From Frankia alni ACN14a (lineage in GTDB: Bacteria; Actinomycetota; Actinomycetes; Frankiales; Frankiaceae): a stretch of 64,000 nucleotides of DNA. Location of the stretch: contig NC_008278.1 of the NCBI RefSeq assembly GCF_000058485.1, positions 4,210,962 through 4,274,961 of the forward strand. Direction: 5' to 3'. A program made the translations under genes and the position numbers. The notes below the pieces were generated by a model that worked only from the letters and a program-made list of their open reading frames with translations, made no database searches and had not been told where the DNA came from. Below are positions 10,941 to 25,797 of the stretch, one piece after another (position 1 is the stretch's first letter; the number at the start of each line of letters is the position of its first letter).

Positions 10941-11906
10941 TCATCGCGCGACCTGGGCGAGGACGTCGTCCCAGTCGGCCAGAAAACGCCCGAGGCCATG
11001 GCGGGCGAGCCCCGCCTGGCGGGCCCGCTTGCCGTAGGCGCGGGCCAGCTCCGGATCGGCGAGGAACCGGCGGGCGGCGTCGACGAGCACCGCCGGATCG
11101 GTGGACAGCACCCCCGCCTCGGCCGGCACCGCCTCGGTCGCCTCCGTCGCCGCCAGCGCGACGACCGGCATGCCCAGCTGCATCGCCTCCAGCAGGGACA
11201 GCCCCAGGGAGGTCCAGCGCGGCAGGTGGACGTACACCCGCCGGCGGGCGAGGGCGTCGTGCAGGTCGGCCTGGGCGAGGTCGTCGAACACCGCGAGCCG
11301 CGCCCTCGGCAGGCCGGTGTGCGCGGGCAGCGCGGCCACACCGATGCCGAACGCGTCGACCGGGGCGGCGCGGGTGAACCCGGCCAGCAGATCGGTGCCG
11401 GTGACCCGGCCGCGGCGCACCGGCTCGTTCACCGCCACCGCGATGCGGGCCAGCTCGCCGGTGTAGCGGTCGCCGGGGTCGACGATGCCGTGCGCGACGA
11501 CCCGGGTGGGGGTGTTTCCGGCGTCCCAGAACAGCCGGTTGAAGTGGGTGACGTGGACGAGCAGCAGCTCCGGCCGGTCGGCGACGGGATGGCGGGTCAG
11601 CGGCACGTCGCCCCGCGGGGTGTTGTGCTCGACGTACACCGCCGGCAGGTCGCGGCCCGGCCGCCGGCCCAACCAGCGCTCGGTGAGCTCCAGCTCGTGC
11701 GGGCGCTGCAGGACGACGACGTCGACGCCGGCGTCGCGCAGCTCGTCCGGTCCGAGTTCGGCGACGGTGCCCGGCCACGGGTAGGTGCGGGCGAGGCCGA
11801 GGCCGTCGGGGCCGCGGCCGGGCAGCACCGGGACCACGTAGGAGTGCCCGCCCTGGACGAACGACGTCGTCCACGAGCCGTGCACATGCCAGAGCAGGAT
11901 TCTCAT
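10941..11906 (-). CDS. Glycosyltransferase (GT-B fold, GT4-like), end of the heptose block's left arm
   Basis: A 321-residue protein opening with M-R-I-L-L-W-H-V-H-G-S-W, a Rossmann-type N-terminal strand with the glycine-rich loop of GT-B enzymes. The C-terminal domain has R-W-T-S-L-G-L-S-L-L-E-A-M-Q-L-G-M-P-V-V-A-L (about 240-262), the E-x-x-A-x-G-x-P-V element that binds the sugar nucleotide, and V-E-H-N-T-P near residue 100. Its ATG overlaps the stop of the upstream GT2 gene (ATGA), so it is the fourth gene in a minus-strand operon with GT2, HldE and GT9. It probably adds a sugar to the same glycan. Donor and acceptor are unknown. Confidence 0.8.
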   Translation of the reverse strand: MRILLWHVHGSWTTSFVQGGHSYVVPVLPGRGPDGLGLARTYPWPGTVAELGPDELRDAGVDVVVLQRPHELELTERWLGRRPGRDLPAVYVEHNTPRGDVPLTRHPVADRPELLLVHVTHFNRLFWDAGNTPTRVVAHGIVDPGDRYTGELARIAVAVNEPVRRGRVTGTDLLAGFTRAAPVDAFGIGVAALPAHTGLPRARLAVFDDLAQADLHDALARRRVYVHLPRWTSLGLSLLEAMQLGMPVVALAATEATEAVPAEAGVLSTDPAVLVDAARRFLADPELARAYGKRARQAGLARHGLGRFLADWDDVLAQVAR

Positions 11907-12802
11907 CCGGTCCCCGTCCCCCCGCGGTCGCGGTCGCAGTCGCGGTCGTGGTCGCAGTCGCGGTCGCGGTCGCAGTCGCGGTCGCGGTCGTCGGTCTCGA
12001 CGATCTCGGCGTAGGCGTCGACGTCGCGATCGACGACGCTCGTGGGCAGTTCCAGGTGCTGGGCGCCCGACGGCAGCAGGCCCACACCGCCGGCCCGTTG
12101 CATCACCCGGAGCTGGGCGACGATCTCCTCGCCCCGGTGGCTGGCGGGCAGCCGCCGCCAGAACTCGAAGCCGCCGCAGTCGACGAGCACGGCGCGGTCG
12201 TAGAGCACGCAGCCGGCGATCCAGGTCACCCGGTAGGCCAGCCAGCCGCCCGCCGGCAGCGTCACCCGCTCGGCGAGGTGGGCCGGGTTCGCCGCGTTGT
12301 GCAGCCGCCACCGCTCCCAGGCCGGTCCGCCCTTGCGGACCCGTTCGGGGCGCACCGGCCCGCGGACCTCCTCGAAGGCGGTCCACTCGTGCGGGCGGAC
12401 GTCGTCGAGGTAGCTCAGGCCCTGCGGCGCGCAGCCGACGAACCCGCAGCGCAGCTCCCCGATCGCCGCCAGCATCCGGGCGACGGTGGACGCGTCGAGG
12501 AAGACGTCGTCGTCGAGGAACAGGACGTACTCGCCGTCGGCCTGGTCGAGCAGGAACTGGCGATGCTCGGCCAGACCGCGGCGCGGGTGGCCGTGGTACA
12601 GGTCGACCCGGTGGCCGCCGCGGCGCAGCCGGCGGGCCATCGCCCGCACCTCCGGCGCGTCGGCGGCGGGCGTCGCGGGGCTCTGGTCGGACACGACGAC
12701 GCGGAACCCGCCGGCGCTCTGGTTGGCGAGCCCGGCCAGGGTCACCGCCAGCGCCGCCGGCCGCCCGCAGGTCGGGATGAGCACGTCCAACCCGCCCGTC
12801 AT
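11903..12802 (-). CDS. Family 2 glycosyltransferase with an Asp-Arg repeat tail
   Basis: A 299-residue GT-A enzyme. The N-terminus D-V-L-I-P-T-C-G-R-P-A-A-L starts the nucleotide-binding fold, S-D-Q-S follows, and Y-V-L-F-L-D-D-D-V-F (about residues 91-100) is the metal-binding DXD-type motif. A downstream G-C-V-L-Y-D-R-A and H-R-G-E-E region fits the acceptor side. The last 25 residues are a repeated Asp/Arg/Cys run coded by near-perfect repeats of about 12 bp (11929-12000). That tail is not part of the domain. The ATG overlaps the stop of hldE and its own stop overlaps the next start, so translation is probably coupled. It has no membrane segment. Confidence 0.85.
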   Translation of the reverse strand: MTGGLDVLIPTCGRPAALAVTLAGLANQSAGGFRVVVSDQSPATPAADAPEVRAMARRLRRGGHRVDLYHGHPRRGLAEHRQFLLDQADGEYVLFLDDDVFLDASTVARMLAAIGELRCGFVGCAPQGLSYLDDVRPHEWTAFEEVRGPVRPERVRKGGPAWERWRLHNAANPAHLAERVTLPAGGWLAYRVTWIAGCVLYDRAVLVDCGGFEFWRRLPASHRGEEIVAQLRVMQRAGGVGLLPSGAQHLELPTSVVDRDVDAYAEIVETDDRDRDCDRDRDCDHDRDCDRDRGGTGTG

Positions 12803-14400
12803 GGCAGTGCCGCCCCGCGCCGGCGGATGCGCCCGAGCAGGTCCGACGTCGACCGGTCCGCGACGTAGTCGACGAAGCGCACCTCGCCGCCGAGCGCCCG
12901 GACCAGCGGCGCCTCGGCGAGCATCGACTCGGTGTAGTCGCCGCCCTTGACGTAGACGTCGGGCCGCAACGCGCGCAGGAGCCGTTCGGGGGTGTCGTCG
13001 TCGAACACGGCGACGTGGTCCACGGCGGCCAGGGCGGTGAGTACCGCGAGCCGGTCGGCGAGCGAGTTGATCGGCCGGTCCGGGCCCTTGAGTCGCCGCA
13101 CGCCGGCGTCGCTGTTGACTGCGACGACGAGGATGTCACCGAGGTGCCGGGCGGCGTGCAGGTAGGCGATGTGGCCGGCGTGGACGACGTCGAAGCAGCC
13201 GTTGGTGAACACGATCCGCCGGCCCCGGCAGCGGTGCGCGGCGACCGCGTCGGCGAGCGCCGCGGCGTCGAGAACGGCGCCGCGGACCCCGCCCGCGGGG
13301 TCGCCGTCGCGGCCGTCACCGGTCGTACGCAGGCGGGCCCGCAGGTCCGCCGCCGAGCAGGTGCCGGTGCCCGGGGTGGACACCGCGGCGCAGGCGGCGA
13401 GCGAGCCGAGCCGGGCGGCGGCGCGCGGGGCGGCGCCGGCGGCGAGGGCGAGGACCATCGCGGCGATGAAACTGTCGCCGGCACCCGAGGTCCGCTCGTC
13501 GGGGGCGTCGGTGCCGGCCGGCAGGTGCCACGGTTCGTCGTCCCGGCTGAGCACGACGACGCCGTCCCGGTCCAGGGTGACCGCGGCGAGGCGGGCGCCG
13601 CTGGCCGCGAGGATCGGCCCGGCGCAGCGGCGCACGGTGGCGACGCGGTCGCGGGCGAACGCGTCGCGGGCGCCGGGTGGCAGCAGCGCCACGACCTCGC
13701 CGGCGTTCGGCTTGACCAGATCGGGCCGGACCCCCGCCCAGCGACCCGGGTCGTGGGCGTCGACGACGAGCCGCCGCCCCGCCGCGCGGGCCGCCGCGCC
13801 GACCGCGTCGATCAGCTCCGGCGTGAACATCCCGGCGCCGTAGTCGCAGGCCAGCACGGCGCAGGCGGCCGGCGTCGACGCCCTCACACCGGCGGCGAGC
13901 GCGGCGGCCGTGGCGGGCGCCGGCGGAGTCTCGTCGCCGGTGTCGCAGCGCAGGTGCAGGTGGTTGCCCGAGCAGATCCGCCGCTTGGCCAGCGTCGCGC
14001 GGCCCGGCTCCGCCACCAGGCCGGCCGTGCCGACCCCGCCCGCGTCGAGCAGGTCAGCGAGCCGGCGGCCGTCGGCGTCGTCGCCGACCATGGCGACCAG
14101 CCGGACGCGCGCGCCGACGACCGATCCGGCCAGCGCCGCGTTGCCCGCCCCGCCCGGGGACTCGGTGCGGGCCGTCACCGACACGACCGGCACCGGGCCC
14201 TCCCGGGACAGTCCCCGCGGCGGCCCCCACAGCCAGGTGTCGAGCATCGCGTCGCCGACCACGAGCAGGTCGAGGTCGGCGAACCGGTCAAGCAGCCCGG
14301 ACAGCCCCGCCTCGCCCGCCACCCCGGCCGCCGCCGTACCCGCCGGTTCGGCCCCCACCTCGCCGGTCGCGCAGGGCGCGCGGCGCAGCGCGGCGCTCAC
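12799..14400 (-). CDS. hldE: Bifunctional heptose-7-phosphate kinase / heptose-1-phosphate nucleotidyltransferase (HldE-like)
   Basis: A 533-residue two-domain enzyme. Residues 40-360 are a PfkB-type kinase: V-V-G-D-A-M-L-D-T-W near the start, the G-G-A-G-N-A-A loop, and the catalytic S-G-A-G-D-S-F. Residues 395-530 are a cytidylyltransferase-fold domain with N-G-C-F-D-V-V-H-A-G-H (the H-x-G-H motif), N-S-D-x-x-V-x-R-L-K-G-P-x-R-P-I-N and Y-V-K-G-G-D-Y, which are specific for heptose-1-phosphate nucleotidyltransferases. In Gram-negatives HldE makes ADP-D,D-heptose with GmhB acting between its two steps. The GTG overlaps the GT9 stop (GTGA). A second copy is fused to GmhA at 21628-23910. Confidence 0.9.
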   Translation of the reverse strand: MSAALRRAPCATGEVGAEPAGTAAAGVAGEAGLSGLLDRFADLDLLVVGDAMLDTWLWGPPRGLSREGPVPVVSVTARTESPGGAGNAALAGSVVGARVRLVAMVGDDADGRRLADLLDAGGVGTAGLVAEPGRATLAKRRICSGNHLHLRCDTGDETPPAPATAAALAAGVRASTPAACAVLACDYGAGMFTPELIDAVGAAARAAGRRLVVDAHDPGRWAGVRPDLVKPNAGEVVALLPPGARDAFARDRVATVRRCAGPILAASGARLAAVTLDRDGVVVLSRDDEPWHLPAGTDAPDERTSGAGDSFIAAMVLALAAGAAPRAAARLGSLAACAAVSTPGTGTCSAADLRARLRTTGDGRDGDPAGGVRGAVLDAAALADAVAAHRCRGRRIVFTNGCFDVVHAGHIAYLHAARHLGDILVVAVNSDAGVRRLKGPDRPINSLADRLAVLTALAAVDHVAVFDDDTPERLLRALRPDVYVKGGDYTESMLAEAPLVRALGGEVRFVDYVADRSTSDLLGRIRRRGAALP

Positions 14401-15479
14401 GCGGCACGTCCCCGGGCGCAGAGACCGAGCGCGGCGGTGGCGACCTCGACCGGTGTCAGGTCCAGGCACTCCTGCTCGAACGGGCAGGTGAAGGCACGGC
14501 ACGGCGAGCACGGCGTCGCCCGGCGCAGCACGACGGCGCGCCCGGCGCGCGGCCGGTACTCGGCCTCCCGTTCGGTGCCGGCGAACAGGGTGACGACGGG
14601 CGCGCGCACCGCGTCGGCCAGGTGCGCCCCGGCCGAGTTGTTGCTGACGGCGACCGCCGCCCCGCTGAGCAACGCGACCAGCCCCGGCACGTCGAGGGCG
14701 CCGGCGAGCCCCCGTCCGGCCGGACCGGCCCCGGCGCGGACCCGGTCGACCAGGGGCGCCTCCTCGCGCGTCCCGGCGACGAGGACGCGCAGCCCCTCCC
14801 CCGCGAGCAGGCCGGCGACCTGGGCGAACCGGTCGGGATCGTAACGCCGCGACGAGCAGCTCGCGCCGGGCAGCAGCACCGCGTACGGGCCGGCCTCGAC
14901 CAGCGGACGCACACGGGTGCGCGCCTGCGTGGGCACGGTGAGGCGGGGATGGCTGCCAGCGGCGGGCAGCCCGGCGTGGCGCAGCAGCAACAGCGCCCGG
15001 TCGACCTGATGAACGCCGCCGGGCAGGTCGTCCACCCAGTGGGTGAGCAGCGAGCCGCCGAACTCCCGCGACGCGCCGACCCGCACCGGGATCCCGGCCA
15101 GCGCGCACACGAACGCGGCGGGCCAGGGCGACTGCGAGAACGAGGTGAAGATGACGGCGGCGTCGTAGCGGCGGGCGGCGAGGGCGCCGACGAGCCGGTC
15201 CTGCTCCCCCGGCTCGACGGCCCGCCCGCCGGCGTCCTGCCAGCACACGCGGGCCACGATCGCCTCGTCGACGTCGTCGATGAGCGGCACGGCGGCGGCG
15301 CCGGCCGGGGAGGTCAGCAGGTCCAGCTCCGCGGCGGGCGCCGCGGCGCGCAGGGCCCGCAGTGCCGGGGTGAGCAGCACGACGTCGCCGAGGTTGTCCG
15401 GGCGGACGGCCAGGATCCGGCGCGCGTCGGCGAGGTCCAGCGGGCCGCCGCTGCCGGCGGCCGGATGATGGCGGCCCAC
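14397..15479 (-). CDS. GT9 heptosyltransferase-like glycosyltransferase, first gene of the left arm
   Basis: About 360 residues of glycosyltransferase family 9, typified by the ADP-heptose:LPS heptosyltransferases WaaC/WaaF. Features: R-I-L-A-V-R-P-D-N-L-G-D-V-V-L-L-T-P-A at the N-terminus, L-L-P-G-A-S and Y-D-P-D-R-F-A-Q-V in the donor domain, S-N-N-S-A-G-A-H-L-A-D-A in the C-terminal domain, and a cysteine cluster C-S-P-C-R-A-F-T-C-P-F near the end as in WaaF. The GTG at 15479 has GGGGGAGGG 5-6 bases upstream, better than the upstream ATG at 15548. It is preceded by the conserved box at 15547-15572. It leads the operon GT9-hldE-GT2-GT. Confidence 0.85.
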   Translation of the reverse strand: MGRHHPAAGSGGPLDLADARRILAVRPDNLGDVVLLTPALRALRAAAPAAELDLLTSPAGAAAVPLIDDVDEAIVARVCWQDAGGRAVEPGEQDRLVGALAARRYDAAVIFTSFSQSPWPAAFVCALAGIPVRVGASREFGGSLLTHWVDDLPGGVHQVDRALLLLRHAGLPAAGSHPRLTVPTQARTRVRPLVEAGPYAVLLPGASCSSRRYDPDRFAQVAGLLAGEGLRVLVAGTREEAPLVDRVRAGAGPAGRGLAGALDVPGLVALLSGAAVAVSNNSAGAHLADAVRAPVVTLFAGTEREAEYRPRAGRAVVLRRATPCSPCRAFTCPFEQECLDLTPVEVATAALGLCARGRAA

Positions 15480-15546
15480 GTCTGCCCTCCCCCGTCGTTT
15501 GCGTCGTTGGCGGCGCTCCCCACCCGATTCCCGGACCCTCGGCAAC

Positions 15547-15572
15547 AAAACTACTACTCAACGTAATCAATG
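15547..15572 (-). promoter_or_regulatory. Conserved upstream box A of the heptose block
   Basis: On the plus strand AAAACTACTACTC, three variable bases, then GTAATCAA and TG. The reverse complement of 18388-18414 is the same apart from the three middle bases and one insertion. Both copies lie 68-95 bp upstream of the first gene of an outward-facing arm, and both have the same orientation relative to that gene. This AT-rich island in GC-rich DNA probably holds a promoter or operator common to both arms. Confidence 0.65.
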
Positions 15573-15615
15573 CTGGTAGACGATGGTGCACCGCCGGAGC
15601 GGGTAGGCCTCCCGC

Positions 15616-16902
15616 ATGCCCGGGAGTGCTCACCGAGCCGCCCCGGCCGGGTCGCCGGCAACCGGACGCGAGCGCCCGGGCGACGGCGGGTGGCGGCCGC
15701 GGGTCGCCTTCGTCTGCGGCAGTCTCGCCCCCGCCGAGGACGGCGTCGCCGACTACACCGTCCGGCTCGCCGCCGCGCTGCGTGACGACGTCGAACCCGT
15801 GCTGGTCACCGCCGGACGCCTCGACGGCGACACCGGCACGTTGCCGGTGGTCGCCACCGGACGGGGCTGGGGGCCGGCGGGTCTGCGCGCCACCGCGCAG
15901 GCCCTGCGGCGGCTACGGCCGGACGTGGTCCACGTGCAGTTCGCCCCGTCGGCGTTCGGGTTCTCCCCGGCCCCGGGGCTGCTGCCCGTCCTGGCCGCCG
16001 CAGGGGCCGTCTGGGTGGCCACGCTGCACGAGTACGGCTGGTGGGCATGGCCGTCGCGGCTGCCGGCGGCGCTGTGGCGGGTGCCGGAACGGCGTGGCTG
16101 GTGGGATCGGGAGACCTTGACCCTCGTCCCGCGGGCGCGGGCCCTCATCGTCACCAACCCCGACCATGCCGCCACCGTGCACACCCGCTTCGGCCGGACC
16201 ACCCAGACGGTGCCGGTCCCCGCGAACATCCCCCGCGCCACCCCGCTCCCCTCCCGCGCCCGGCTACACGCCCGGCTGGACGCGCCGCCCGACGCCGAGG
16301 TGGCGGTGTTCTTCGGCTTCGTCCATCCGGTGAAGGGCGTGCGTTACCTGATCGACGCCGTCGCCGCGCTGCACACGCGGCGGCCGCGGCTACGCCTCGC
16401 GATCGTCGGCGGATTCACCTCGCTCGCGCTGCCCACGGCCGAGGCGGCGGCGTTCCGCCGCGAGCTCACCGAGCACGCCCACACCGCCGGGGTCGGCGAC
16501 CTGGTCACCTTCACCGGGCACCTGCCCGCCGCCGAGGTCTCGGAGATCCTGGCCGCGGCCGACGTGTGCGTCCTGCCGTTCACCGCCGGCGTGACGACGA
16601 AGAGCGGGGCGCTGGCCGCCGCCCTGTCCCACGGGCTGGCGACGATCGTCACCGCCGCGGACCCGCCCGATCCGGCGCTGGTCGACGGCCGGACGGTCCT
16701 CGTCGCCGACCGGGTACGCGACCCGGTGCCCCTGGCCGCCGCGCTGCATCGCGCGCTGGGGGATCCGGCGCTGCGGGCGCGGGTGGCGGCCGGCGGGCAG
16801 CGCCTGGTCGCCGCCCGCACCTGGCCCACGATCGGCGCGGCCCACACCCGCCTCTACCACCAGGTGCTCGCCGACGACGCCCGACCGCAGCCCCGCCGAT
16901 GA
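15616..16902 (+). CDS. Family 4 glycosyltransferase
   Basis: A 428-residue GT-B glycosyltransferase. Residues 1-28 are a polar, probably flexible leader; the fold begins at R-V-A-F-V-C-G-S-L-A-P-A-E-D-G-V-A-D-Y-T-V-R-L, the usual GT4 N-terminal glycine loop and helix. V-H-V-Q-F-A-P and A-T-L-H-E-Y-G-W are in the acceptor domain. The donor domain has F-F-G-F-V-H-P-V-K-G-V, F-T-G-H-L-P, and A-A-D-V-C-V-L-P-F with G-V-T-T-K-S-G-A-L-A-A-A-L, which replaces the usual E-x7-E region. The ATG has GGTAGG upstream. Its stop overlaps the following GT9 start (ATGA), making a two-gene inner operon. Confidence 0.85.
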   Translation: MPGSAHRAAPAGSPATGRERPGDGGWRPRVAFVCGSLAPAEDGVADYTVRLAAALRDDVEPVLVTAGRLDGDTGTLPVVATGRGWGPAGLRATAQALRRLRPDVVHVQFAPSAFGFSPAPGLLPVLAAAGAVWVATLHEYGWWAWPSRLPAALWRVPERRGWWDRETLTLVPRARALIVTNPDHAATVHTRFGRTTQTVPVPANIPRATPLPSRARLHARLDAPPDAEVAVFFGFVHPVKGVRYLIDAVAALHTRRPRLRLAIVGGFTSLALPTAEAAAFRRELTEHAHTAGVGDLVTFTGHLPAAEVSEILAAADVCVLPFTAGVTTKSGALAAALSHGLATIVTAADPPDPALVDGRTVLVADRVRDPVPLAAALHRALGDPALRARVAAGGQRLVAARTWPTIGAAHTRLYHQVLADDARPQPRR

Positions 16903-18209
16903 CCGCCATCCCGGCCGGCGCGGTTCCGTCCACCGCGGTTCCGTCCACCGCTGGCCCGGCCGGCGCAGGCGCGGCCGGCGCAGGCCCGGCCGGCGCAGGC
17001 CCGGCGACGGCTCCGGGCATCGGCGAGATCCTGTTCGTCGAGTTGCTGGGTGGTATCGGCGACCTGCTCATCGCCCTGCCGGCCATCCACCTGCTCGCCG
17101 ACAGCCATCCCCGCGCGCGGCTTCGGGTGCTCACCTTCACCCCGGCGGTCGAGCTGCTGCACGGCGACCCACGGGTCGCCGAGATCCTCCCGTTGACCGA
17201 CCACGGCGGGCGCGCCGTGCAGGCCGCCGTCCGTGACGCGATGGCGCGCCGTCCGGATCTGGCCGTGACGACGACCCGGCACAGCGGCGTACCGGCGGCG
17301 ATCGAATCCGGCCGGCCCCGCTTCGCGGTGACGGACCTGTGGCGCGGCCCCGGCCCGCACGAGCCGATCGGCGACCGCTACGTGCGGCTACTCGCCGCCG
17401 ACGGCTGGCTCCGGCTCCCCGACGGCGCCGACCGACCCGCGGGCGGGCGGCGCGAGCCCGACCAGCTCGGCGAACGCCCGCCGGGACAGGTGGCCCTGGA
17501 CTCCGGCGAGCTCACCGAGGGCCGGCACCGCCTCGTCGCACTCACCACGCCCGGCGGCACCACGCCCGGCGGCACCACGCCCGGCGGCACGGCGTCCGGC
17601 ACGGCCGGCGGGGGCGTGCCGGTGCTGCTGGTCCCCGACGCGGGGATGGCGGTCAAGCGGTGGCCGGCGCCGCGCTGGGCCGAACTCGCCCGCCTGCTCA
17701 CCGCCCGGGGTCACCCGCTGCTGCACCCGCACGGGACGGCGGTGCCGAGGGCGGTGGCGGTGCCCCCGCTGTCGCTGCGGGAGTTCGCCGGGCTGTGCGC
17801 GGCGGTGGCGGAACGCGGTGGCGTCGTCGTGGGCGGCGACACCGGTCCGGTGCGCCTGGCGGCCGCGGTCGGCGCTCCCACCGTGACGTTGTTCGGCCCC
17901 AGCACAGCCGCTCGCTACGGGCTGGTCGGGCAGGACGGGTCGGCCACACGCACCAGGCTGGCCGATCGCAGGCTGGCCGGCGGCACAGCGGGCACCGACG
18001 CCCGGCGCCCGCGGCGCACCCTCGGCGCGGACCTGCAGGGCCTGCCGGACTGCGCCGTCCGCCGACCCCTCGCGATCACCGAGCAGGAGTGCTGGTGGAC
18101 GGCCCGCTGCCCGCTCGCCCCGGACGGCCCGGCCTGCCTGGACGACCTGAGCGCCGAGCAGGTCGCCGGCGCTGTCGCGGAGGTGGCGCGGACGCCGCCG
18201 ACTGTTTGA
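16899..18209 (+). CDS. GT9 heptosyltransferase-like glycosyltransferase with repeat inserts
   Basis: A 436-residue GT9 enzyme. After an Ala/Gly/Pro-rich leader (residues 1-42) come E-I-L-F-V-E-L-L-G-G-I-G-D-L-L-I-A-L-P-A (heptosyltransferase N-terminal motif), P-D-A-G-M-A-V-K-R-W-P-A-P-R-W in the donor domain, and V-V-G-G-D-T-G-P-V-R-L-A-A-A-V-G with T-L-F-G-P-S near the end. Between the two domains lie three perfect copies of a 15-bp unit (17544-17588) coding T-P-G-G-T repeats, an insertion not needed for the fold. Four cysteines near the C-terminus resemble the WaaF-type cluster. Translation is likely coupled to the preceding GT4. Confidence 0.85.
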   Translation: MTAIPAGAVPSTAVPSTAGPAGAGAAGAGPAGAGPATAPGIGEILFVELLGGIGDLLIALPAIHLLADSHPRARLRVLTFTPAVELLHGDPRVAEILPLTDHGGRAVQAAVRDAMARRPDLAVTTTRHSGVPAAIESGRPRFAVTDLWRGPGPHEPIGDRYVRLLAADGWLRLPDGADRPAGGRREPDQLGERPPGQVALDSGELTEGRHRLVALTTPGGTTPGGTTPGGTASGTAGGGVPVLLVPDAGMAVKRWPAPRWAELARLLTARGHPLLHPHGTAVPRAVAVPPLSLREFAGLCAAVAERGGVVVGGDTGPVRLAAAVGAPTVTLFGPSTAARYGLVGQDGSATRTRLADRRLAGGTAGTDARRPRRTLGADLQGLPDCAVRRPLAITEQECWWTARCPLAPDGPACLDDLSAEQVAGAVAEVARTPPTV

Positions 18210-18239
18210 CCACCACCTCGACTTGACCACCACCTCGAC
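18206..18239. repeat. Two perfect tandem copies of a 17-bp unit at a gene end
   Basis: TTGACCACCACCTCGAC at 18206-18222 is repeated at 18223-18239. The first copy contains the stop codon of the GT9 gene. The remaining gap to the next gene holds box B and no other recognisable signal. Confidence 0.8.
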
Positions 18240-18414: not shown

Positions 18415-18507
18415 GGCGGCGTTCGCCAGGGCAGTCCTGTCTGCGTGACTGGACAGACCGATCCCGTGCTCAACTCGGACGACTCACCGCGAGTGGACGG
18501 ACGATAT

Positions 18508-19083: not shown

Positions 19084-20351
19084 GCGCGCGGGTGCTCGTC
19101 GTCCGCCTCGACAGTGACGGCGACGTCCTGCTCTCCGGGCCGGCGATCCGGGCGGTGGCCGCGCGGGCCGCGCACGTCACGCTGCTCGTCGGCCCCCGCG
19201 GTCGGTCGGCCGCCGGCCTGCTGCCCGGCGTCGACGAGACGATCGTCTGGCGCTGCCCGTGGATCGACGCGACGCCGCCGCCGGTGCGCCGCGACGACGT
19301 CGACGGCCTCGTCGACCGGCTCGCGGCCGGCCGCCACGACGAGGCGCTGATCCTCACCTCGTTCCATCAGAGCCCGCTGCCGGTCGCGCTGCTGCTGCGC
19401 CTGGCCGGGGTGCCGCGCATCGCCGCGGCGTGCGAGGACTATCCCGGCACGCTGCTCGATGTCCGTCACCGGCTACCCGAGCGCGGTCTGCACGAGGTGA
19501 CGCGCGCGCTGTCGACAGCGGCGGCGCTGGGTTACCCGCTGCCCGTCGGCGACGACGGCATGCTGGCGCTGCGCCGGCCGCTGCCCGATCCGACGCCGCT
19601 GATCGGCCCGGGGCCGGCAGTCGGCGCGATGCCGGCGGACGGCGCGATGCCGGCGGACGGCGCGATGCCGATGGTCGGCGCGGTGCCGGCGGGCGCCCGG
19701 CCCTACGTCGTGCTGCACCCGGGGGCCTCCGTCTCCGCGCGGCGCTGGCACGTGGCTGGCTTCGCCGCCGTCGCCCGCCACCTGGTCGGGCGCGGCCACC
19801 GGGTCGTCGTGACCGGCGGACCCCGGGAGACACCGCTGACCGCCGCCGTCGCCGGCGGGCTGGCGGGCGTACGGGACCTCGGCGGGCGCACCGACCTCGC
19901 GGCCCTCGCCGGCGTGCTGGAACGGGCCGGGGCCGTCGTCGTCGGCAACACCGGACCGGCGCATCTCGCGGCGGCCGTGGCCACGCCGGTCGTGTCCCTG
20001 TTCGCCCCCACCGTGCCGGCGGAACGCTGGGCCCCCCACACCCCGCGCCTGGTGCTGCTCGGCGAGCAGGGCCTCGGCTGCGCCGGCTGCCGTGCCCGGG
20101 ACTGCCCGGTGCCCGGCCACCCCTGCCTGAGCCGGGTCGAGCCGGGCGACGTCGTCGCCGCCGTCGAGACCCTCCTCGCCCCCGCTCCCTCAACCGCCCC
20201 CGCTCCCTCAACCGTCACCGCCCACTCGACAGTCACCGCCCACTCGACCGCCACCGCGCCCTCGTTCGCACCTGCCACCGCCGCCCCGCCGGCCGGACCG
20301 ACCGTGGCCGTCGGCCCGACCAGCCCGGACGCCCTGGAGGCATCCCGATGA
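19080..20351 (+). CDS. GT9 heptosyltransferase-like glycosyltransferase
   Basis: A 423-residue GT9 protein. R-V-L-V-V-R-L-D-S-D-G-D-V-L-L-S-G-P-A is the N-terminal motif; L-I-L-T-S-F-H-Q-S-P-L-P resembles the equivalent I-F-T-S-F-S-Q-S-P-W-P in the left-arm GT9, so the two are close relatives. The donor domain has V-L-H-P-G-A-S-V-S-A-R-R-W and V-G-N-T-G-P-A-H-L-A-A-A-V-A-T-P, and a C-A-G-C cysteine cluster follows. An 18-bp tandem repeat (about 19618-19680) codes A-D-G-A-M-P repeats between the domains, and the last 50 residues are Ser/Thr/Ala/Pro repeats. It starts inside the gmhB stop (GTGA). Confidence 0.85.
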   Translation: MSARVLVVRLDSDGDVLLSGPAIRAVAARAAHVTLLVGPRGRSAAGLLPGVDETIVWRCPWIDATPPPVRRDDVDGLVDRLAAGRHDEALILTSFHQSPLPVALLLRLAGVPRIAAACEDYPGTLLDVRHRLPERGLHEVTRALSTAAALGYPLPVGDDGMLALRRPLPDPTPLIGPGPAVGAMPADGAMPADGAMPMVGAVPAGARPYVVLHPGASVSARRWHVAGFAAVARHLVGRGHRVVVTGGPRETPLTAAVAGGLAGVRDLGGRTDLAALAGVLERAGAVVVGNTGPAHLAAAVATPVVSLFAPTVPAERWAPHTPRLVLLGEQGLGCAGCRARDCPVPGHPCLSRVEPGDVVAAVETLLAPAPSTAPAPSTVTAHSTVTAHSTATAPSFAPATAAPPAGPTVAVGPTSPDALEASR

Positions 20352-21625
20352 ACGTCTCGATGGTCTCCGAGCACGCCAGCCCGCTCGCCGCCCTCGGCGG
20401 GGTCGACGCGGGCGGGCAGAACGTGCACGTGGCCGCCCTTGCCACGGCGCTGGCCCGCCGCGGCGTCGAGGTCACCGTGCACACCCGACGGGACGATCCC
20501 GAGCTGCCCCGGTACGTGCGCCACGGCGCCGGCGTGCGGATCGACCATGTCCCCGCCGGACCGGCGTGCTACGTGCCCAAGGACGAGCTGCTGCCCTACA
20601 TGGACGGCTTCGCCGCCGAGCTGCACCGGCAGTGGCGGTGCCGGCGTCCGGACATCGTCCACGCGCACTTCTGGATGTCGGGGCTCGCCGCCCTGCGCGC
20701 CGCCCGCCCGCTCGGCGTCCCCGTCGTGCTCACCATGCACGCCCTCGGGGTGGTCAAGCGCCGTCATCAGGGACGCAAGGACACCTCGCCGCCGGCGCGC
20801 ATCCCGCTGGAACGCCGGCTCGTCGCCGACGTCGACCAGCTCGTCGCCACCTGCACCGACGAGGTCTTCGAGCTCGTCCGGATGGGCGCGCCGCGGCGGC
20901 GGATCAGCGTCGTGCCCTGCGGAGTCGACCTGTCCCTGTTCACCACCGAAGGCCCAGCGTCCCCCACCGAAGGCCCAGCGTCCCCCACCAAAGGCCCCGC
21001 GTTCCCCACGCGCGGTCGAGCCGATCGCGTGCGGCTGCTGTCGGTCGGTCGGCTGGTGGAACGCAAGGGCGTCGGCAACGTGATCAGCAGCCTGCCGCTC
21101 CTGCCGCGGGCCGAGCTCGTCGTCGCCGGCGGGCCGGATCCGGCGGGCATCGACAGCGACGCGGAGGTGGGCCGGTTGCGCCGGCTCGCCGCGGAGCTGG
21201 GCGTGGCCGACCGGGTGCGTTTCCTCGGCCGGGTCGACCACGACGCGCTGCCGGCGCTGTACCGGGAGGCGGACATCGTGACCTGTGTGCCCTGGTACGA
21301 GCCGTTCGGCATCGTCCCGTTGGAGGCCATGGCCTGCGGGGTGCCCGTCGTCGCCTCCGCCGTCGGCGGCCTCGTCGACACGGTCGTGGACGGCATGACC
21401 GGGCTGCACGTCCCGCCGCGCTGCCCGGAACGCATCGCCGAAGCCCTCGCCGAGCTGATCGACGATCCGGGGTGGCGGCTCGAACTCGGCGCGCAGGGCG
21501 CCCGACGGGCCCGCTCCCTGTTCTCCTGGGACCGGGTCGCGGCGCTCACCCTCGCCAGCTACGAACGGCTGGCCGCTCGTGGCCCGGCGCGCCTGAGCGC
21601 CCCCGACCTGCCTGCGGGGGTGTGA
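20348..21625 (+). CDS. Family 4 glycosyltransferase (sucrose-synthase/MshA-like)
   Basis: A 425-residue retaining GT-B enzyme. N-terminal M-V-S-E-H-A-S-P-L-A-A-L-G-G-V-D-A-G-G-Q-N-V-H-V is the GGxxVH-type loop of GT4 enzymes; the donor domain has L-S-V-G-R-L-V-E-R-K-G, V-A-G-G-P-D-P and the signature E-P-F-G-I-V-P-L-E-A-M-A-C-G-V-P-V-V-A-S with both glutamates. Between the domains, three copies of a 21-bp unit (about 20943-21010) code G-P-A-S-P-T-E repeats. The ATG overlaps the stop of the preceding GT9. It is followed 2 bp later by the GmhA-HldE fusion, so it is an internal operon gene. Confidence 0.9.
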   Translation: MNVSMVSEHASPLAALGGVDAGGQNVHVAALATALARRGVEVTVHTRRDDPELPRYVRHGAGVRIDHVPAGPACYVPKDELLPYMDGFAAELHRQWRCRRPDIVHAHFWMSGLAALRAARPLGVPVVLTMHALGVVKRRHQGRKDTSPPARIPLERRLVADVDQLVATCTDEVFELVRMGAPRRRISVVPCGVDLSLFTTEGPASPTEGPASPTKGPAFPTRGRADRVRLLSVGRLVERKGVGNVISSLPLLPRAELVVAGGPDPAGIDSDAEVGRLRRLAAELGVADRVRFLGRVDHDALPALYREADIVTCVPWYEPFGIVPLEAMACGVPVVASAVGGLVDTVVDGMTGLHVPPRCPERIAEALAELIDDPGWRLELGAQGARRARSLFSWDRVAALTLASYERLAARGPARLSAPDLPAGV

Positions 21626-21627
21626 CG

Positions 21628-23910
21628 GTGAGCGCGCTGCCGACGGGGCACGAGCATCTCGCCGCACTGCACCGGGCACTGGACGACGTCGACGTCGTCC
21701 GGCTCACCGCCTGGGGCGGACGCCTGGCCGCCGTCCTGGCCGCGGGCGGACGGCTGCTCGCCGCGGGCAACGGCGGATCGGCCGCCGAGGCGCAGCACCT
21801 GACCGCCGAGCTCGTCGGCCGCTTCCGCGACGACCGGCCGCCGATGTCCGCGATCGCCCTGCACGCCGACACCTCCGCCCTCACCGCGATCGGCAACGAC
21901 TACGGCTACGACGCCGTGTTCGCCCGCCAGGTCCGCGCCCACGGCCGGCCGGGAGACGTGCTGATCCTGCTGTCCACCTCGGGCCGCAGCACCAACCTGC
22001 TGCACGCCGCCCGGGCCGCCCACGAGCTGGGCATGGCCACGTGGGGGCTGGTCGGGGCGGCCGACAGCCCGCTCGCGGCCGCCTGCGACGAGGTCGTCGC
22101 GGTCGGCTCCGCCTCCCCCGGCACGAACCGGCCGGCCCGCGGGGGAATCGCCCCTGGCCGCCGCGGCCGCGGCGGCGCCGGCGGCGCAACGACGTCCACG
22201 GCCACCGTGCAGGAGACCCACCTCGTCGCCGTGCACCTGCTCTGCGCAGCCTGCGACGCGGCGCTCGGCGTCGCCCCTGCCGGCGCGTCCACGACCGGGG
22301 ACGAGCCGGCGGCGCCCGCCGACGACACCGGCGCCGGGTCGGATCGCTCCGTCCGCGTGCGGGCGACGCGGGCGTCGGGCCGGGCGCGGTCCGGCCCGCT
22401 GGTGATCGTCGGCGACGCGTTGCTGGACCGGGACGTCGCCGGTCGGGTGGAACGGCTGGCTCCCGACGCGCCGGTGCCCGTCCTCGACGAGATCGCCGAC
22501 ACCGCCCGGCCGGGTGGGGCGGGGCTCGCCGCGCTGCTGGCCGCGGGCGACGGCGCCGACGTCGTCCTCGTCACCGCGCTGGCCGGTGACGACGCCGGCC
22601 GGCGGCTCGCCGCCCTGCTCGCCGACGCCGGGATCGCCGTGGTCGACCTCGGCCTGACCGGCCCGACCCCACAGAAGATCCGGCTGCGCGCGGGCGCGAC
22701 CACCCTGCTTCGGCTCGATCGCGGCAGCGGCGGCAGCGGCAGCGGCGGTAGCGGGACTCCGGTCCGCGGCGGCCTGCCCGAGGAGGGTCGGCGGGCCCTG
22801 GCCGCCGCTCGGGGCATTCTCGTCAGCGACTACGGCCGCGGGCTGACGCACGAACGTTCGGTGACGGTCGCCCTCGCGAGCCGCCCGGGTGGGGTGCCGC
22901 TCGTCTGGGATCCGCATCCGCGCGGCGGCGAACCGTGCCGCGGCGCGACGCTGGTCACCCCGAACCTCGCCGAGGCCCGCGGATTCACCGCCGGCACCCC
23001 GGCGCGGCGCGATCCCATCGCCGAGGCCACCGACCGCGGACGCCGACTGGTGACCCGCTGGGGCGCCGGCGCCGCGGCGATCACACTGGGTGAACGCGGC
23101 GCGGTGCTGGTCGGTCCCGAGGCCGGTCCTCCCCTGGTCGCGCCCGCCGAGCCCGTCGACGCCGATCCGTGCGGCGCGGGCGACCGCTTCGCGGCGAGCG
23201 CCGCGGCCCTGCTGGGCGCGGGGGCGCTGCCGTCGGAGGCGGTCGTCGCGGCGACCCGGGCGGCCGGTGCCTTCCTCGCCGCCGGTGGCGTGTCGGCGCT
23301 TCCTCCCGAGCCGGGACGCCACACCGGCGAGCACGCCACCGACCAGCCCGGCGGCGGTCACGGCGGCACCCGTGGCCACGGCGGGACCGGCGAGCACGGC
23401 GGGACCGGCGCCGGCCATGGCGGCACCGGCACCGGCACCGGGATCGGGATGGCGGCGGCCCTGGAGGTGGTGCGGCGCACCCGCGCCCGCGGTGGGGTGG
23501 TGGTCAGCACCGGCGGCTGCTTCGACCTGCTGCACGCCGGTCACGTCAACGTTCTGGCCGCCGCCCGCCGCCTCGGCGACTGCCTCGTCGTCTGCCTGAA
23601 CAGCGACCTGTCCGTCCGCCGGCTGAAAGGCCCCGACCGGCCGCTGGTGAGCCAGGCCGATCGGGCGGCCGTGCTGTTGGCGCTGGGCAGCGTCGACGCG
23701 GTCGTCGTGTTCGACGACGACACGCCCGCGCCGATCCTGGCGCGGCTGCGCCCGGACGTGTTCGCGAAGGGCGGCGACTACGCGGCCGGCGACCTGCCGG
23801 AGGCCGCGGTGGTCGAGTCCTGGCGGGGACAGGCGGTCATCCTGCCCTACCTCGCCGGCCGATCCACCACATCGATGATCAGAGAGGCGGTGCGCCGTGG
23901 CGGCACCTGA
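21628..23910 (+). CDS. Three-domain fusion: GmhA-type isomerase + heptose kinase + nucleotidyltransferase
   Basis: A 760-residue protein joining three heptose steps. Residues 20-195 are a SIS domain of the GmhA type: A-G-N-G-G-S-A-A-E-A-Q-H-L-T-A-E-L, L-S-T-S-G-R-S-T-N and a Q-E-T-H-x5-H zinc/active-site stretch. Residues 257-560 are a PfkB kinase (V-G-D-A-L-L-D-R-D, P-G-G-A-G-L-A-A, C-G-A-G-D-R-F). Residues 620-755 are the nucleotidyltransferase (G-G-C-F-D-L-L-H-A-G-H, L-N-S-D-x-S-V-R-R-L-K-G-P-D-R-P, F-A-K-G-G-D-Y). Gly/Ser and Gly/His/Thr linkers separate the parts. GmhA and HldE are normally separate proteins. GTG 21628 has a GGGGG 7 bases upstream; GTG 21622 overlaps the previous stop. 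Confidence 0.9.
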   Translation: MSALPTGHEHLAALHRALDDVDVVRLTAWGGRLAAVLAAGGRLLAAGNGGSAAEAQHLTAELVGRFRDDRPPMSAIALHADTSALTAIGNDYGYDAVFARQVRAHGRPGDVLILLSTSGRSTNLLHAARAAHELGMATWGLVGAADSPLAAACDEVVAVGSASPGTNRPARGGIAPGRRGRGGAGGATTSTATVQETHLVAVHLLCAACDAALGVAPAGASTTGDEPAAPADDTGAGSDRSVRVRATRASGRARSGPLVIVGDALLDRDVAGRVERLAPDAPVPVLDEIADTARPGGAGLAALLAAGDGADVVLVTALAGDDAGRRLAALLADAGIAVVDLGLTGPTPQKIRLRAGATTLLRLDRGSGGSGSGGSGTPVRGGLPEEGRRALAAARGILVSDYGRGLTHERSVTVALASRPGGVPLVWDPHPRGGEPCRGATLVTPNLAEARGFTAGTPARRDPIAEATDRGRRLVTRWGAGAAAITLGERGAVLVGPEAGPPLVAPAEPVDADPCGAGDRFAASAAALLGAGALPSEAVVAATRAAGAFLAAGGVSALPPEPGRHTGEHATDQPGGGHGGTRGHGGTGEHGGTGAGHGGTGTGTGIGMAAALEVVRRTRARGGVVVSTGGCFDLLHAGHVNVLAAARRLGDCLVVCLNSDLSVRRLKGPDRPLVSQADRAAVLLALGSVDAVVVFDDDTPAPILARLRPDVFAKGGDYAAGDLPEAAVVESWRGQAVILPYLAGRSTTSMIREAVRRGGT

Positions 23911-24730
23911 GGTGACCCTCGACGCGACAACGACGACGAACCAGCTGACGACGAACCACGTGACGACGAACCCGACGACGACGAACGCGTCAGCCACGGA
24001 GGCGACGGCCACGAAGGCGGCGCCGGGCTTCCCGGCCGGCCGCGCGGACGAGGTCGGGACGGTCCTCGTCTCCGGCGGGGCCTCGGGGCTGGGGGCCGCG
24101 GTCGTTGCGGCCGTGCGCGACGCCGGGGGAACGCCCCTCGTCCTCGACCGGTTTCCGGTCCCGTCCGCCGAGCACGCGATCGTCGACCTCGCCGACGGCC
24201 GCGCCACCGAGCTCGCCACCCGCCGGCTCGTCGAGCGGGCCGGCGGGCGACTCGACGGCGTGTTCACCGCCGCGGGGACCGACCGTCCGGCGCCGTTCGG
24301 GTCGCTGGACGGTGCCGGCTGGGAACGCATCGTCGGCGTGAACCTGCTCGGCACGGCGGCGGTGATCCGCGGGGCGCTGCCGTACCTGGAGGCCTCGGCC
24401 GGACGCATCGTGACCTGCGCGTCCACCCTGGGCCTGCGGGTCGCGGGCGACGCGTCGGCGTACTGCGCGTCGAAGTTCGGCGTCGTCGGGTTCACCCGGG
24501 CGCTGGCCGAGGAGTTCCGGGGCCGGCTCGGCGTGACGCTGCTCGTGCCCGGCGGGATGACCACCGCCTTCTTCGACGACCGCGAGGAGCAGTACAAGCC
24601 GGGGCCCGACGCCAAACTCAACCGGCCCGAGGACGTCGCGCGCACGGTGCTGTTCGCCCTGACGCAGCCGCCCGGCTGCGAGATCCGGGAACTGGTGGTG
24701 ACGTCGTCCTGGGAGACGTCCTACCCGTGA
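23897..24730 (+). CDS. Classical short-chain dehydrogenase/reductase in the heptose block
   Basis: A 277-residue SDR. The first 50 residues are a Thr/Asn/Ala-rich leader with T-T-N repeats. The Rossmann motif S-G-G-A-S-G-L-G follows (about residues 58-65), then A-A-G-T in place of N-N-A-G, a catalytic Ser in T-C-A-S-T, and Y-C-A-S-K. So the Ser-Tyr-Lys triad is intact. It lacks the length and motifs of the extended SDR HldD (heptose 6-epimerase), so a different sugar oxidation or reduction is likelier. The GTG start overlaps the fusion gene by 14 bp, and its stop overlaps the next GT9 start, placing it firmly in the operon. Confidence 0.8.
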   Translation: MAAPEVTLDATTTTNQLTTNHVTTNPTTTNASATEATATKAAPGFPAGRADEVGTVLVSGGASGLGAAVVAAVRDAGGTPLVLDRFPVPSAEHAIVDLADGRATELATRRLVERAGGRLDGVFTAAGTDRPAPFGSLDGAGWERIVGVNLLGTAAVIRGALPYLEASAGRIVTCASTLGLRVAGDASAYCASKFGVVGFTRALAEEFRGRLGVTLLVPGGMTTAFFDDREEQYKPGPDAKLNRPEDVARTVLFALTQPPGCEIRELVVTSSWETSYP

Positions 24731-25797
24731 GCACCGATCCCGCCGGGCGCGGGCCGGTCGTGGTGCTGCGCGCGCTCGGCCTCGGCGACCTGCTCACCGG
24801 TCTGCCCGCGATGCGCGGCCTGCGCCGAGCCCTGCCGGACGTGGACATGGTGCTGGCCGCCCCCCGCTGGCTGGAACCGGTGGCGCTGCTGTCCGGGAGC
24901 GTCGACGCCGTGCTCGACACCGCGCCGCTCGGACCGGTGCGCGTCGAACGCCCGCGGCTCGCCGTCAACCTGCACGGCCGAGGCCCGCAGTCCACCGCCA
25001 CGCTGCGTACCTGCCGGCCGGACGCCCTGTGGGCGTTCGACCTGCCGCGGGGCCCACGGTGGGAGCCCATCGGCGGCGCCGCCAGGCTCGACCGGGCCGA
25101 CGGGACCGGCCGAACAGGCAGGGTCGGCGCAGCGCGCTCGGACCGGGATCCGCAGGAGCGTGAGGTGGTTCGGTGGTGCCGGCTGCTCGCCGCGTACGGC
25201 GTGCCCTGCGACCCGGCGGACCTGGCGCTCGCCCGACCCGACCGGTCGGGTCGGGCGGACCGGGATGTCACTGTGGTCCATCCGGGTGGAGCGGCACCGG
25301 CTCGGCGCTGGCCGGCCCAGCGGTGGGCGCGGGTGGCCCGTGGCCTCGCCGATCGGGGGCATCGGGTCATCGTGACGGGCGGGGCGGCCGAGGCGGCACT
25401 CGCCCGTCAGGTGGCGCACGGCGCCGGGCTCGGGCCCGCGGCCGTGCTCGCCGGCGCCACCGATCTGCTCGACCTGTGCGCTCTCGTCGCCGCGGCCCGG
25501 CTCGTGGTCGCCGCCGACACCGGCGTCGGGCATCTCGCCACCGCCTACGGCACGCCCTCCGTGCTCGTGTTCGGTCCGGTGCCGCCGGCGGTCTGGGGAC
25601 CGCCGCCGGACCGGCCCCGGCACCGTGCCCTGTGGGCCGGCCGGCACGACGACCCGTTCGCCCCGGCGCCCGGGTCCGGCCTGCTGGCCGTCACCTCGGC
25701 GGACGTCCTCACCGCCGTGGACGAACTCGTCGCGGGTACGCAGGAGCCACCGGTACGGGCCGAGCCGTCCGGCCGGCGGTGCGGACCGGGCCTTTGA
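24727..25797 (+). CDS. GT9 heptosyltransferase-like glycosyltransferase, last gene of the right arm
   Basis: A 356-residue GT9 enzyme, the fourth in this locus. V-V-V-L-R-A-L-G-L-G-D-L-L-T-G-L-P-A is the N-terminal motif, V-V-H-P-G-G-A-A-P-A-R-R-W-P-A-Q-R-W the donor phosphate region, and V-V-A-A-D-T-G-V-G-H-L-A-T-A-Y-G-T-P-S the C-terminal motif with the D-T-G-x-x-H found in active family members. It lacks the cysteine cluster seen in the others. The GTG overlaps the SDR stop (GTGA). Its stop codon lies inside the left copy of a 10-bp inverted repeat that reaches to the TIR gene start. Confidence 0.85.
   Translation: MSTDPAGRGPVVVLRALGLGDLLTGLPAMRGLRRALPDVDMVLAAPRWLEPVALLSGSVDAVLDTAPLGPVRVERPRLAVNLHGRGPQSTATLRTCRPDALWAFDLPRGPRWEPIGGAARLDRADGTGRTGRVGAARSDRDPQEREVVRWCRLLAAYGVPCDPADLALARPDRSGRADRDVTVVHPGGAAPARRWPAQRWARVARGLADRGHRVIVTGGAAEAALARQVAHGAGLGPAAVLAGATDLLDLCALVAAARLVVAADTGVGHLATAYGTPSVLVFGPVPPAVWGPPPDRPRHRALWAGRHDDPFAPAPGSGLLAVTSADVLTAVDELVAGTQEPPVRAEPSGRRCGPGL

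What the first reader, a model, noticed from the sequence alone, without database searches (positions are those of the whole stretch)
10941..25797. Complete D,D-heptose activation and transfer locus in an actinomycete
Genes for all four steps from sedoheptulose 7-phosphate to a nucleotide-activated heptose are here (GmhA-type isomerase, heptose kinase, GmhB-type phosphatase, nucleotidyltransferase), with four GT9 heptosyltransferase-like enzymes, two GT4, one GT2 and one more GT. Known context: this pathway feeds LPS inner core in Gram-negatives. A cell with no LPS that carries a dedicated operon with its own divergent arms suggests a heptose-containing surface or secreted glycan. That the enzymes work on heptose is inferred from family motifs.
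Basis: partly seen in the sequence, partly recalled or inferred. Interest (0 to 1): 0.78.

Follow-up and report, generated by a model that had tools for sequence, protein, structure and literature searches.

The report
Actinobacterial heptose activation and glycosylation locus
An actinobacterium (probably Frankia) that lacks LPS carries a 15-kb gene set predicted to activate a seven-carbon sugar, by two different versions of one enzyme, and to build it into an unidentified glycan; related loci occur in many other actinobacteria.

Summary
Window 10941-25797 is twelve tightly packed genes on two divergent arms: GmhB, a GmhA-kinase-nucleotidyltransferase triple fusion, a second kinase-nucleotidyltransferase, four GT9, three GT4-like, one GT2 and a classical SDR. 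Key motifs are present, but only one domain passes its NCBIfam heptose cut-off. No LpxC match exists in the genome, so LPS is an unlikely product.

(1) The locus is not peculiar to this strain: its core order GT9-GT4-GT4-GmhA-HldE recurs across Actinomycetota; the core GT4 is in 30 of 296 sampled genomes, 29 of which also have an HldE. (2) The two HldE copies belong to two separate, well-supported clades. The GmhA-linked clade has fixed substitutions at two Asn motif positions and mostly carries the Arg linked in print to ATP/CTP/UTP promiscuity. (3) Two of 13 genomes of the genus hold the locus; three others keep differing deletion scars at the same site.

Heptose activation in actinobacteria and tridomain enzymes are already published. 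The glycan, the heptose isomer and the nucleotide are unknown. Best reading: a cytoplasmic NDP-heptose supply with dedicated transferases making a non-LPS heptose glycoconjugate.

The parts
10941..11906 (-). g11, GT4-like glycosyltransferase, 321 aa; core gene of these loci across the phylum
   Evidence: PF00534 2.2e-11 on the C-terminal half; 50-69% identity to 18 relatives; its profile matches 30 of 296 genomes
11903..12802 (-). g12, GT2 glycosyltransferase, 299 aa
   Evidence: PF00535 2.2e-14; its cluster is next to the g13-type HldE in 12 of the 16 named loci that have one
12799..14400 (-). g13, HldE-type kinase + nucleotidyltransferase, 533 aa, clade B with canonical Asn residues
   Evidence: PRK11316 6.3e-96, TIGR02199 194.1 bits over cut-off 181.5; alignment to 4e84 and 5x9q; clade B 100/97
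14397..15479 (-). g14, GT9 heptosyltransferase-like, 360 aa
   Evidence: PF01075 4.2e-29; TIGR02195 100.4 bits, cut-off 134.6; heptosyltransferase II structure 1psw 2.9e-14
15480..15615 (.). divergent intergenic region between the two arms, 136 bp
   Evidence: gene calls
15616..16902 (+). g15, GT4, 428 aa
   Evidence: PF13692 8.6e-18
16899..18209 (+). g16, GT9, 436 aa; motif His replaced by Arg (DTGPVRL)
   Evidence: PF01075 2.5e-13; motif
18508..19083 (+). g17, GmhB-type HAD phosphatase, 191 aa, with DRDGT and a CPHAPDAGCPCRKP metal-loop-like motif
   Evidence: PRK08942 4.9e-32, below cut-off; D,D-heptose 1,7-bisphosphate phosphatase structures 4pnh, 3l8e, 2gmw best
19080..20351 (+). g18, GT9, 423 aa, core gene
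   Evidence: PF01075 3.6e-27; 3tov and 1psw; cluster 1, 67 loci incl. window
20348..21625 (+). g19, GT4 related to MshA and Tll1590 (6kih), 425 aa, core gene
   Evidence: TIGR03449 261.6 bits, cut-off 462.5; an MshA over cut-off lies elsewhere, 651.5 bits; structures
21622..23910 (+). g20, GmhA-kinase-nucleotidyltransferase triple fusion, 762 aa, clade A with Leu302 and Gly631, GRSTT
   Evidence: SIS_2, PfkB, CTP_transf_like; phosphoheptose isomerase structures about 1e-35; clade A 100/100
23912..24730 (+). g21, classical SDR, 272 aa, with GGASGLG and YCASK
   Evidence: PF00106 2.7e-28; alignment of 19
24727..25797 (+). g22, GT9, 356 aa, core gene
   Evidence: PF01075 1e-25; heptosyltransferase structures 1psw, 2gt1

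Best explanation
A cytoplasmic NDP-heptose factory with its own transferases. The GmhA domain of g20 isomerises sedoheptulose 7-phosphate to a heptose 7-phosphate; the kinase domains of g20 and g13 add a second phosphate at C1; g17 (GmhB) removes the 7-phosphate; the nucleotidyltransferase domains of g20 and g13 make NDP-heptose. GT9 enzymes (two core, two accessory) and GT4/GT2 enzymes then build a heptose-containing oligosaccharide on an acceptor that is not lipid A. The conserved core (g17, g18, g11, g19, g20, g21, g22) is old in Actinomycetota. The second module (g13, g12) adds a second HldE of the canonical type. Shown here: gene content, key motifs, phylum-wide linkage, two distinct HldE clades, no LpxC and no above-cut-off HldD, loss in several genomes of the genus. 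Inferred: all reactions, the identity of the heptose and its nucleotide, and that the product is a cell-surface or secreted glycoconjugate.
For: All four activities by family; g20's first domain aligns to phosphoheptose isomerase structures at about 1e-35; GAGD Asp in 73 of 73 clade A and 17 of 17 clade B rows, second His of HxGH in 73/73 and 17/17; GmhB structures best for g17; LPS heptosyltransferase structures among the best for g14, g18, g22 (g16 not run). Core order GT9-GT4-GT4-(GmhA)-HldE in 53 of 62 named loci that hold these four clusters. In 296 sampled Actinomycetota (own genome included) the core GT4 is in 30 genomes, 29 of which also have an HldE; of 26 genomes with an HldE over 500 bits, 25 have the GT4, 24 of them within 12 kb on one contig (counted by hand). 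No LpxC match.
Against: Most domains fall below NCBIfam equivalog cut-offs. Clade A has Leu for Asn at g13 N87 (70 of 70 aligned rows) and Gly for Asn at g13 N400 (73 of 73), so its sugar may differ from D,D-manno-heptose. Pfam shows no exporter, polymerase or priming transferase among the twelve genes, so 'surface glycan' is not supported by anatomy. g16 lacks the GT9 motif His. A pattern scan of the separate GmhA proteins found the Glu motif in 52 of 63 and the QExH motif in 44 of 63; the unmatched ones were not examined. One A1-positive genome, G254, showed no HldE. I found no sugar analysis.
Confidence: 0.68

Rival explanations
1. The locus makes a soluble small molecule or diffusible glycoside (natural product) with a heptose, as in septacidin or hygromycin B, not a surface glycan.
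For: No exporter, polymerase or priming enzyme among the twelve genes; g19 is related to MshA, an enzyme that glycosylates a small acceptor (recalled); PMC11461863 (part 1 of 2 read) names septacidin of Streptomyces fimbriatus as a use of NDP-heptose.
Against: Eight glycosyltransferases and no aglycone-forming gene (PKS, NRPS, nucleoside) in the Pfam results for the twelve; gene order conserved across the phylum.
Confidence: 0.2
2. The clade A enzymes (g20) activate a different C7 sugar phosphate (for example a C3 epimer, D-glycero-D-altro-heptose) and only g13 handles D,D-manno-heptose, so the locus makes two activated sugars.
For: Leu302 and Gly631 fixed in clade A against Asn in clade B and in six non-actinobacterial HldE; both clades side by side in 16 of 75 named loci with gene calls, plus the window; HldE tolerance of the altro epimer is reported in PMC10948575 (passage).
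Against: Loci with clade A alone usually still have GmhA and GmhB, the usual manno-heptose set; no structure or assay places Leu302 or Gly631 at the sugar; only one GmhA domain feeds both enzymes here.
Confidence: 0.25
3. The two HldE copies differ only in nucleotide: g20 is a promiscuous (CTP/UTP) type, clade B mostly ATP.
For: Arg at the fifth STT-motif position in 60 of 73 clade A rows against 2 of 15 aligned clade B rows (3 of 17 in the other row set); motif meaning from PMC11573728 (part 1 of 2 read).
Against: The window's own g13 is one of the few clade B rows that do carry Arg; the first motif residue is Tyr, not Phe/Leu, in both window enzymes; fixed changes also lie at other motifs.
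Confidence: 0.25
4. A decayed or horizontally acquired Gram-negative LPS core cluster with no function.
For: Present in only 2 of 13 genomes of the genus.
Against: All twelve frames open; key motifs present; the same two-armed set in Parafrankia L031 (g12 and g13 swapped) and Pseudofrankia L032; both HldE clades are actinobacterial and apart from the six other rows; deletion scars show loss, not gain.
Confidence: 0.03

Closest known systems
Tridomain NDP-heptose synthetases of actinobacteria (Tang et al. 2022, Sci China Life Sci; title seen in the reference list of PMC10948575; text not held)
   Same: g20 has isomerase, kinase and nucleotidyltransferase in one chain
   Different: Paper unread, so differences cannot be listed. 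Of 74 cluster-0 HldE in my named loci only 5 are fused to GmhA (two Frankiaceae, three Georgenia); 63 loci carry a separate GmhA gene (home-made gene calls)
HldE, or HldA + HldC, with GmhA and GmhB (ADP-heptose pathway of LPS)
   Same: Same four steps; g13 keeps GGAxN, GAGD, TNGCFD and HxGH
   Different: Below equivalog cut-offs except one domain; no HldD over cut-off; no LpxC; two HldE of different clades
GT9 LPS heptosyltransferases (WaaC, WaaF, WaaQ; names recalled)
   Same: Same Pfam family; N-terminal GD motif and C-terminal [DN][TS][GA]xxH in g14, g18, g22
   Different: All below TIGR02193/02195/02201 cut-offs; acceptor unlikely to be lipid A
Septacidin and hygromycin B heptose biosynthesis in Streptomyces (Tang 2018 PNAS; not held; content recalled, title seen)
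   Same: Gram-positive use of sedoheptulose 7-phosphate for an activated heptose
   Different: Small-molecule clusters; no aglycone genes here; eight glycosyltransferases here
NDP-heptose enzymes across kingdoms, STTR5 motif (Tang 2024 Science, not held; known here through PMC11461863 and PMC11573728)
   Same: g20 and g13 have Arg at the fifth motif position
   Different: First residue Tyr, not Phe/Leu; g13 reads YVADRSTS

Membership tests
HldE (bifunctional heptose kinase/nucleotidyltransferase) | PfkB kinase domain fused to CTP_transf_like domain | tested here: met
   g13 and g20
HldE (bifunctional heptose kinase/nucleotidyltransferase) | NCBIfam equivalog cut-offs (PRK11316, TIGR02198, TIGR02199) | tested here: inconclusive
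   Only TIGR02199 on g13 passes; g20 misses it by 3.5 bits; PRK11316 321.8 and 266.1 against 521; TIGR02198 185.3 and 127.2 against 345
HldE (bifunctional heptose kinase/nucleotidyltransferase) | Asn in GGAxN and in TNGCFD, as in 4e84, 5x9q and the six outgroup rows | tested here: not met
   Not met by g20 (L302, G631); met by g13 (N87, N400)
HldE (bifunctional heptose kinase/nucleotidyltransferase) | heptose 7-phosphate kinase and heptose 1-phosphate nucleotidyltransferase activity | not testable with these tools
   needs an assay
Tridomain NDP-heptose synthetase | isomerase, kinase and nucleotidyltransferase domains in one open frame | tested here: met
   g20, 762 aa, no stop inside
STTR5 promiscuous nucleotidyltransferase | (F/L)XXGRSTT | tested here: inconclusive
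   g20 YLAGRSTT, g13 YVADRSTS: Arg present, first residue differs
GmhB | HAD motif DxDGT and C-x-H...C-x-C loop (motifs recalled) | tested here: met
   DRDGT and CPHAPDAGCPCRKP in g17, aligned to 4pnh and 3l8e
GmhB | NCBIfam cut-off | tested here: not met
   PRK08942 110.9 of 178, TIGR00213 73.8 of 149.6
GmhA | NCBIfam cut-off | tested here: not met
   TIGR00441 146.2 of 209.45, PRK13936 150.5 of 276 for g20
LPS heptosyltransferase (TIGR02193/02195/02201) | score over curated cut-off | tested here: not met
   best is g14, 100.4 of 134.6
LPS core locus | lipid A pathway in the cell | tested here: not met
   no LpxC match in the own genome; other lipid A genes not searched
MshA (mycothiol) | TIGR03449 cut-off | tested here: not met
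   g19 261.2 of 462.5; another gene scores 651.5

The most novel reading that the evidence does not exclude
Actinomycetota have an ancient, widely shared heptose glycan pathway of their own, whose GmhA-linked HldE lineage has a re-tooled sugar site and makes a different activated heptose (another isomer, or a CDP/UDP form) from the canonical HldE; Frankia and some others carry both versions in one locus and so use two activated heptoses in one glycan.
Probability: 0.27. Interest if true: 0.8.

Novelty: new variant of a known kind. Interest (0 to 1): 0.55.

Why it matters
Authors of the CDP- and UDP-heptose work write that the roles of these sugars remain elusive and that conserved genes next to the enzymes may give hints (PMC11573728, part 1 of 2 read). 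This locus is such a neighbourhood: conserved in order, tied to particular transferases, and present in cultivated genera such as Streptomyces, Micromonospora and Curtobacterium, so the product can be sought by removing one gene. The paired clades with fixed residue changes give a defined enzyme comparison. Three genomes of the genus have lost the locus with different scars, which raises the question of what selects against it in a genus of plant symbionts (lifestyle recalled).

Tried and rejected
Rejected: lateral LPS remnant (open frames, key motifs, actinobacterial clades). Rejected: g19 is MshA (an MshA over cut-off lies elsewhere). Rejected: the locus was inserted in this genome only (G002, G009 and G011 keep remnants of locus genes at the site, so they lost it). 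G012 keeps both edges on two contigs and could not be judged; for the other seven genus genomes I did not resolve the site. Rejected: the transporters near the locus belong to it; the MFS at 9035-10468 is kept at the site in genomes that lost the locus; the MFS at 28744-30216 and the MMPL protein at 4588-7056 lie beyond the neighbours and were not followed.

Led nowhere: six literature searches for a heptose glycan in actinobacteria (listings seen) showed no title or abstract about such a structure or locus; the held library lacks most subscription papers, so this is not evidence of absence. The salt-stress paper PMC5563000 (two passages) reports one salt-induced gene named ADP-heptose:LPS heptosyltransferase in a Frankia strain from Casuarina; not linked to this locus. 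A hydrophobicity scan gave maxima of 1.28-1.95 for g11-g22 against 2.67 for the MFS g09; several exceed the usual 1.6 threshold (recalled) but are Ala/Val-rich stretches, so I claim neither membrane spans nor their absence. I did not fold any protein.

Before the residue count I took the two outgroup rows L095 and L104 out of cluster 0 (75 to 73); three clade A rows had a gap at the Leu position, one clade B row at the TNG position and two at the Arg position. One search examined 55 distinct frames; two pairs in it are overlapping pieces of one gene (L006/L025, L008/L024). The phylum searches score at most 5 or 7 first-look candidates per genome, so absences and second copies may be missed; the models were built from named loci of this kind. 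The clusters were named from one or two representatives each. Gene starts are approximate.
Full report
WHAT IS THERE. The window is G000:C1:4210962-4274961 of a 7,497,934-bp single-contig genome. From that size I recall Frankia alni ACN14a; no call names it, and 'Frankia' for the genus is by recall too. Twelve genes fill 10941-25797: minus arm g14 (GT9), g13 (kinase-nucleotidyltransferase), g12 (GT2), g11 (GT4-like); plus arm g15 (GT4), g16 (GT9), then after 298 bp g17 (GmhB), g18 (GT9), g19 (GT4), g20 (GmhA-kinase-nucleotidyltransferase), g21 (SDR), g22 (GT9). Eight of the ten same-strand neighbours overlap by 4 bp.

ARE THEY HEPTOSE ENZYMES? The best NCBIfam matches of the activation domains are heptose families, but only TIGR02199 on g13 passes its cut-off. 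Against solved structures, g20's first domain matches phosphoheptose isomerases at about 1e-35, its third and g13's second domain match the nucleotidyltransferase 5x9q at 1e-35 and 1e-37, both kinase domains match heptose kinase 4e84 (g13 1.6e-22, g20 2.3e-23), and g17 matches D,D-heptose bisphosphate phosphatases. Three GT9 match LPS heptosyltransferase structures; g16 was not run there. The genome has no LpxC match (the control search rings in 4 of 14 genomes) and no HldD over cut-off, only 13 weaker matches (the control rings in 14 of 14, over the cut-off in 2).

THE LOCUS RECURS. A scan of genome contigs with g20 gave 80 named loci, from Streptomyces, Micromonospora, Salinispora, Saccharothrix, Microbispora, Curtobacterium, Rathayibacter, Arthrobacter, Georgenia, Nocardiopsis, a Mycobacterium, Thermoleophilaceae and others, with a few non-actinobacterial HldE. 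tblastn and clustering show a core GmhB - GT9 (g18 type) - GT4 (g11 type) - GT4 (g19 type) - GmhA - HldE - SDR - GT9 (g22 type); the SDR is missing next to HldE in several Streptomyces loci. Of 62 loci with the g18, g11, g19 and HldE clusters, 53 have them in that order. In the window g11 sits on the other arm. Beside the core, 31 of 75 loci with gene calls have a gene of cluster 8 within two genes of GmhB/GT9; its representative is a NodU-like carbamoyltransferase. 28 loci hold a gene of cluster 9, not all adjacent; two members score best, below cut-off, as dTDP-glucose 4,6-dehydratase. Neither is in the window locus. In an even draw of 296 Actinomycetota genomes, own genome included, the g11-type GT4 is in 30 and an HldE in 38. 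The best HldE scores fall in two groups, 510-629 bits (26 genomes) and 376 bits or less. Of the 26, 25 have the GT4 and 24 have it within 12 kb on the same contig (G333 has it on another contig, G260 not at all). Of the 30 GT4 genomes 29 have an HldE of either kind; the exception is G254.

TWO HldE LINEAGES. A tree of 55 kinase-nucleotidyltransferase frames gives three groups, each one side of a well-supported branch: clade A (g20 type, 32 rows, 100/100), clade B (g13 type, 17 rows, 100/97) and six non-actinobacterial rows (100/99). In alignments, clade A has Leu where clade B has Asn at g13 N87 (70 of 70 against 17 of 17 aligned rows) and Gly where B has Asn at g13 N400 (73 of 73 against 16 of 16); the six outgroup rows have Asn at both. 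From recall, N87 is the Asn of the PfkB signature, which contacts sugar in ribokinase. The Asp of GAGD and the second His of HxGH are kept in every row; one clade B row reads Arg at the first His. The Arg reported as a hallmark of promiscuity for ATP, CTP and UTP (PMC11573728) is in 60 of 73 clade A and 2 of 15 aligned clade B rows (3 of 17 in the row set), and the window's g13 is one of those. In the phylum draw 22 of the 26 genomes with a clade-A-level HldE show no second HldE, so clade A mostly has to serve the pathway by itself. Of 74 cluster-0 proteins in named loci five are fused to GmhA, in Frankiaceae and Georgenia; one search shows long frames of this kind in further genomes of the family.

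LOSS IN THE GENUS. Two of 13 genomes (G000, G003) hold both HldE. In G011 the flanking MFS (93%) and TIR/PAS (74%) genes are 863 bp apart instead of 15.4 kb. The junctions are not clean: G011 keeps DNA matching window up to 10948, 24097-24169 (inside g21) and from 25653 (end of g22); G009 keeps window to 11197, 23449-23485 (inside g20) and 25647-25723 (end of g22); G002 keeps window to 11055 and 11442-11511 (both g11) and joins inside g23 at 26812 (weakest piece 6e-10). Each keeps pieces that the others lack, so the ends arose separately. The locus was there before and was lost. G012 holds both edges on two contigs and is unclear.

HOW IT PROBABLY WORKS. See Best explanation. The steps to NDP-heptose follow from families with motif support. 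The product class is open: transferases are many, but nothing among the twelve genes exports, polymerises or primes a glycan by Pfam, so the product could be a glycolipid, glycoprotein or small glycoside. I favour a glycoconjugate because eight transferases and a conserved gene order fit a structural glycan better than a specialised metabolite.

WHAT IS KNOWN. [quoted passage not shown] not held). In the listings I saw no paper on the glycan, on the core locus with its GT4 partner, or on the two-clade pattern; the 2022 paper may hold some of it.

Noticed in passing
window 25918-27183 (+): TIR_2 domain joined to a YheO-like PAS_6 domain, next to the locus; a full-length relative sits at the same site in G011 and G009, which lost the locus; only weak PADLOC matches.
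   Followed up: partly
window 38963-43948 (-): 1661-aa protein with TIR_2, a NACHT-associated inactive-endonuclease domain, NACHT and WD40 repeats, an NLR-like architecture; no PADLOC model matches.
   Followed up: no
L097:3248-4885 and 30 other named loci: Cluster 8, a NodU-like carbamoyltransferase by its representative, lies within two genes of GmhB/GT9 in all 31 of the 75 loci that have it; suggests a carbamoylated sugar there, absent in the window.
   Followed up: partly
G243 C41, G184 C22, G291 C1, G333 C3: The core GT4 (divergent in G184, G291 and G333) sits within about 5 kb of an HldE of the lower-scoring kind, so that GT4 can partner either HldE type.
   Followed up: no
window 34702-37915: ApbE-type protein, then a gene that I did not scan, then a Complex I 51K-like protein: a possible electron-transfer operon.
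   Followed up: no
L141 (G011), L142 (G009), L143 (G002): Differing deletion scars at the heptose-locus site in three genomes of the genus.
   Followed up: yes
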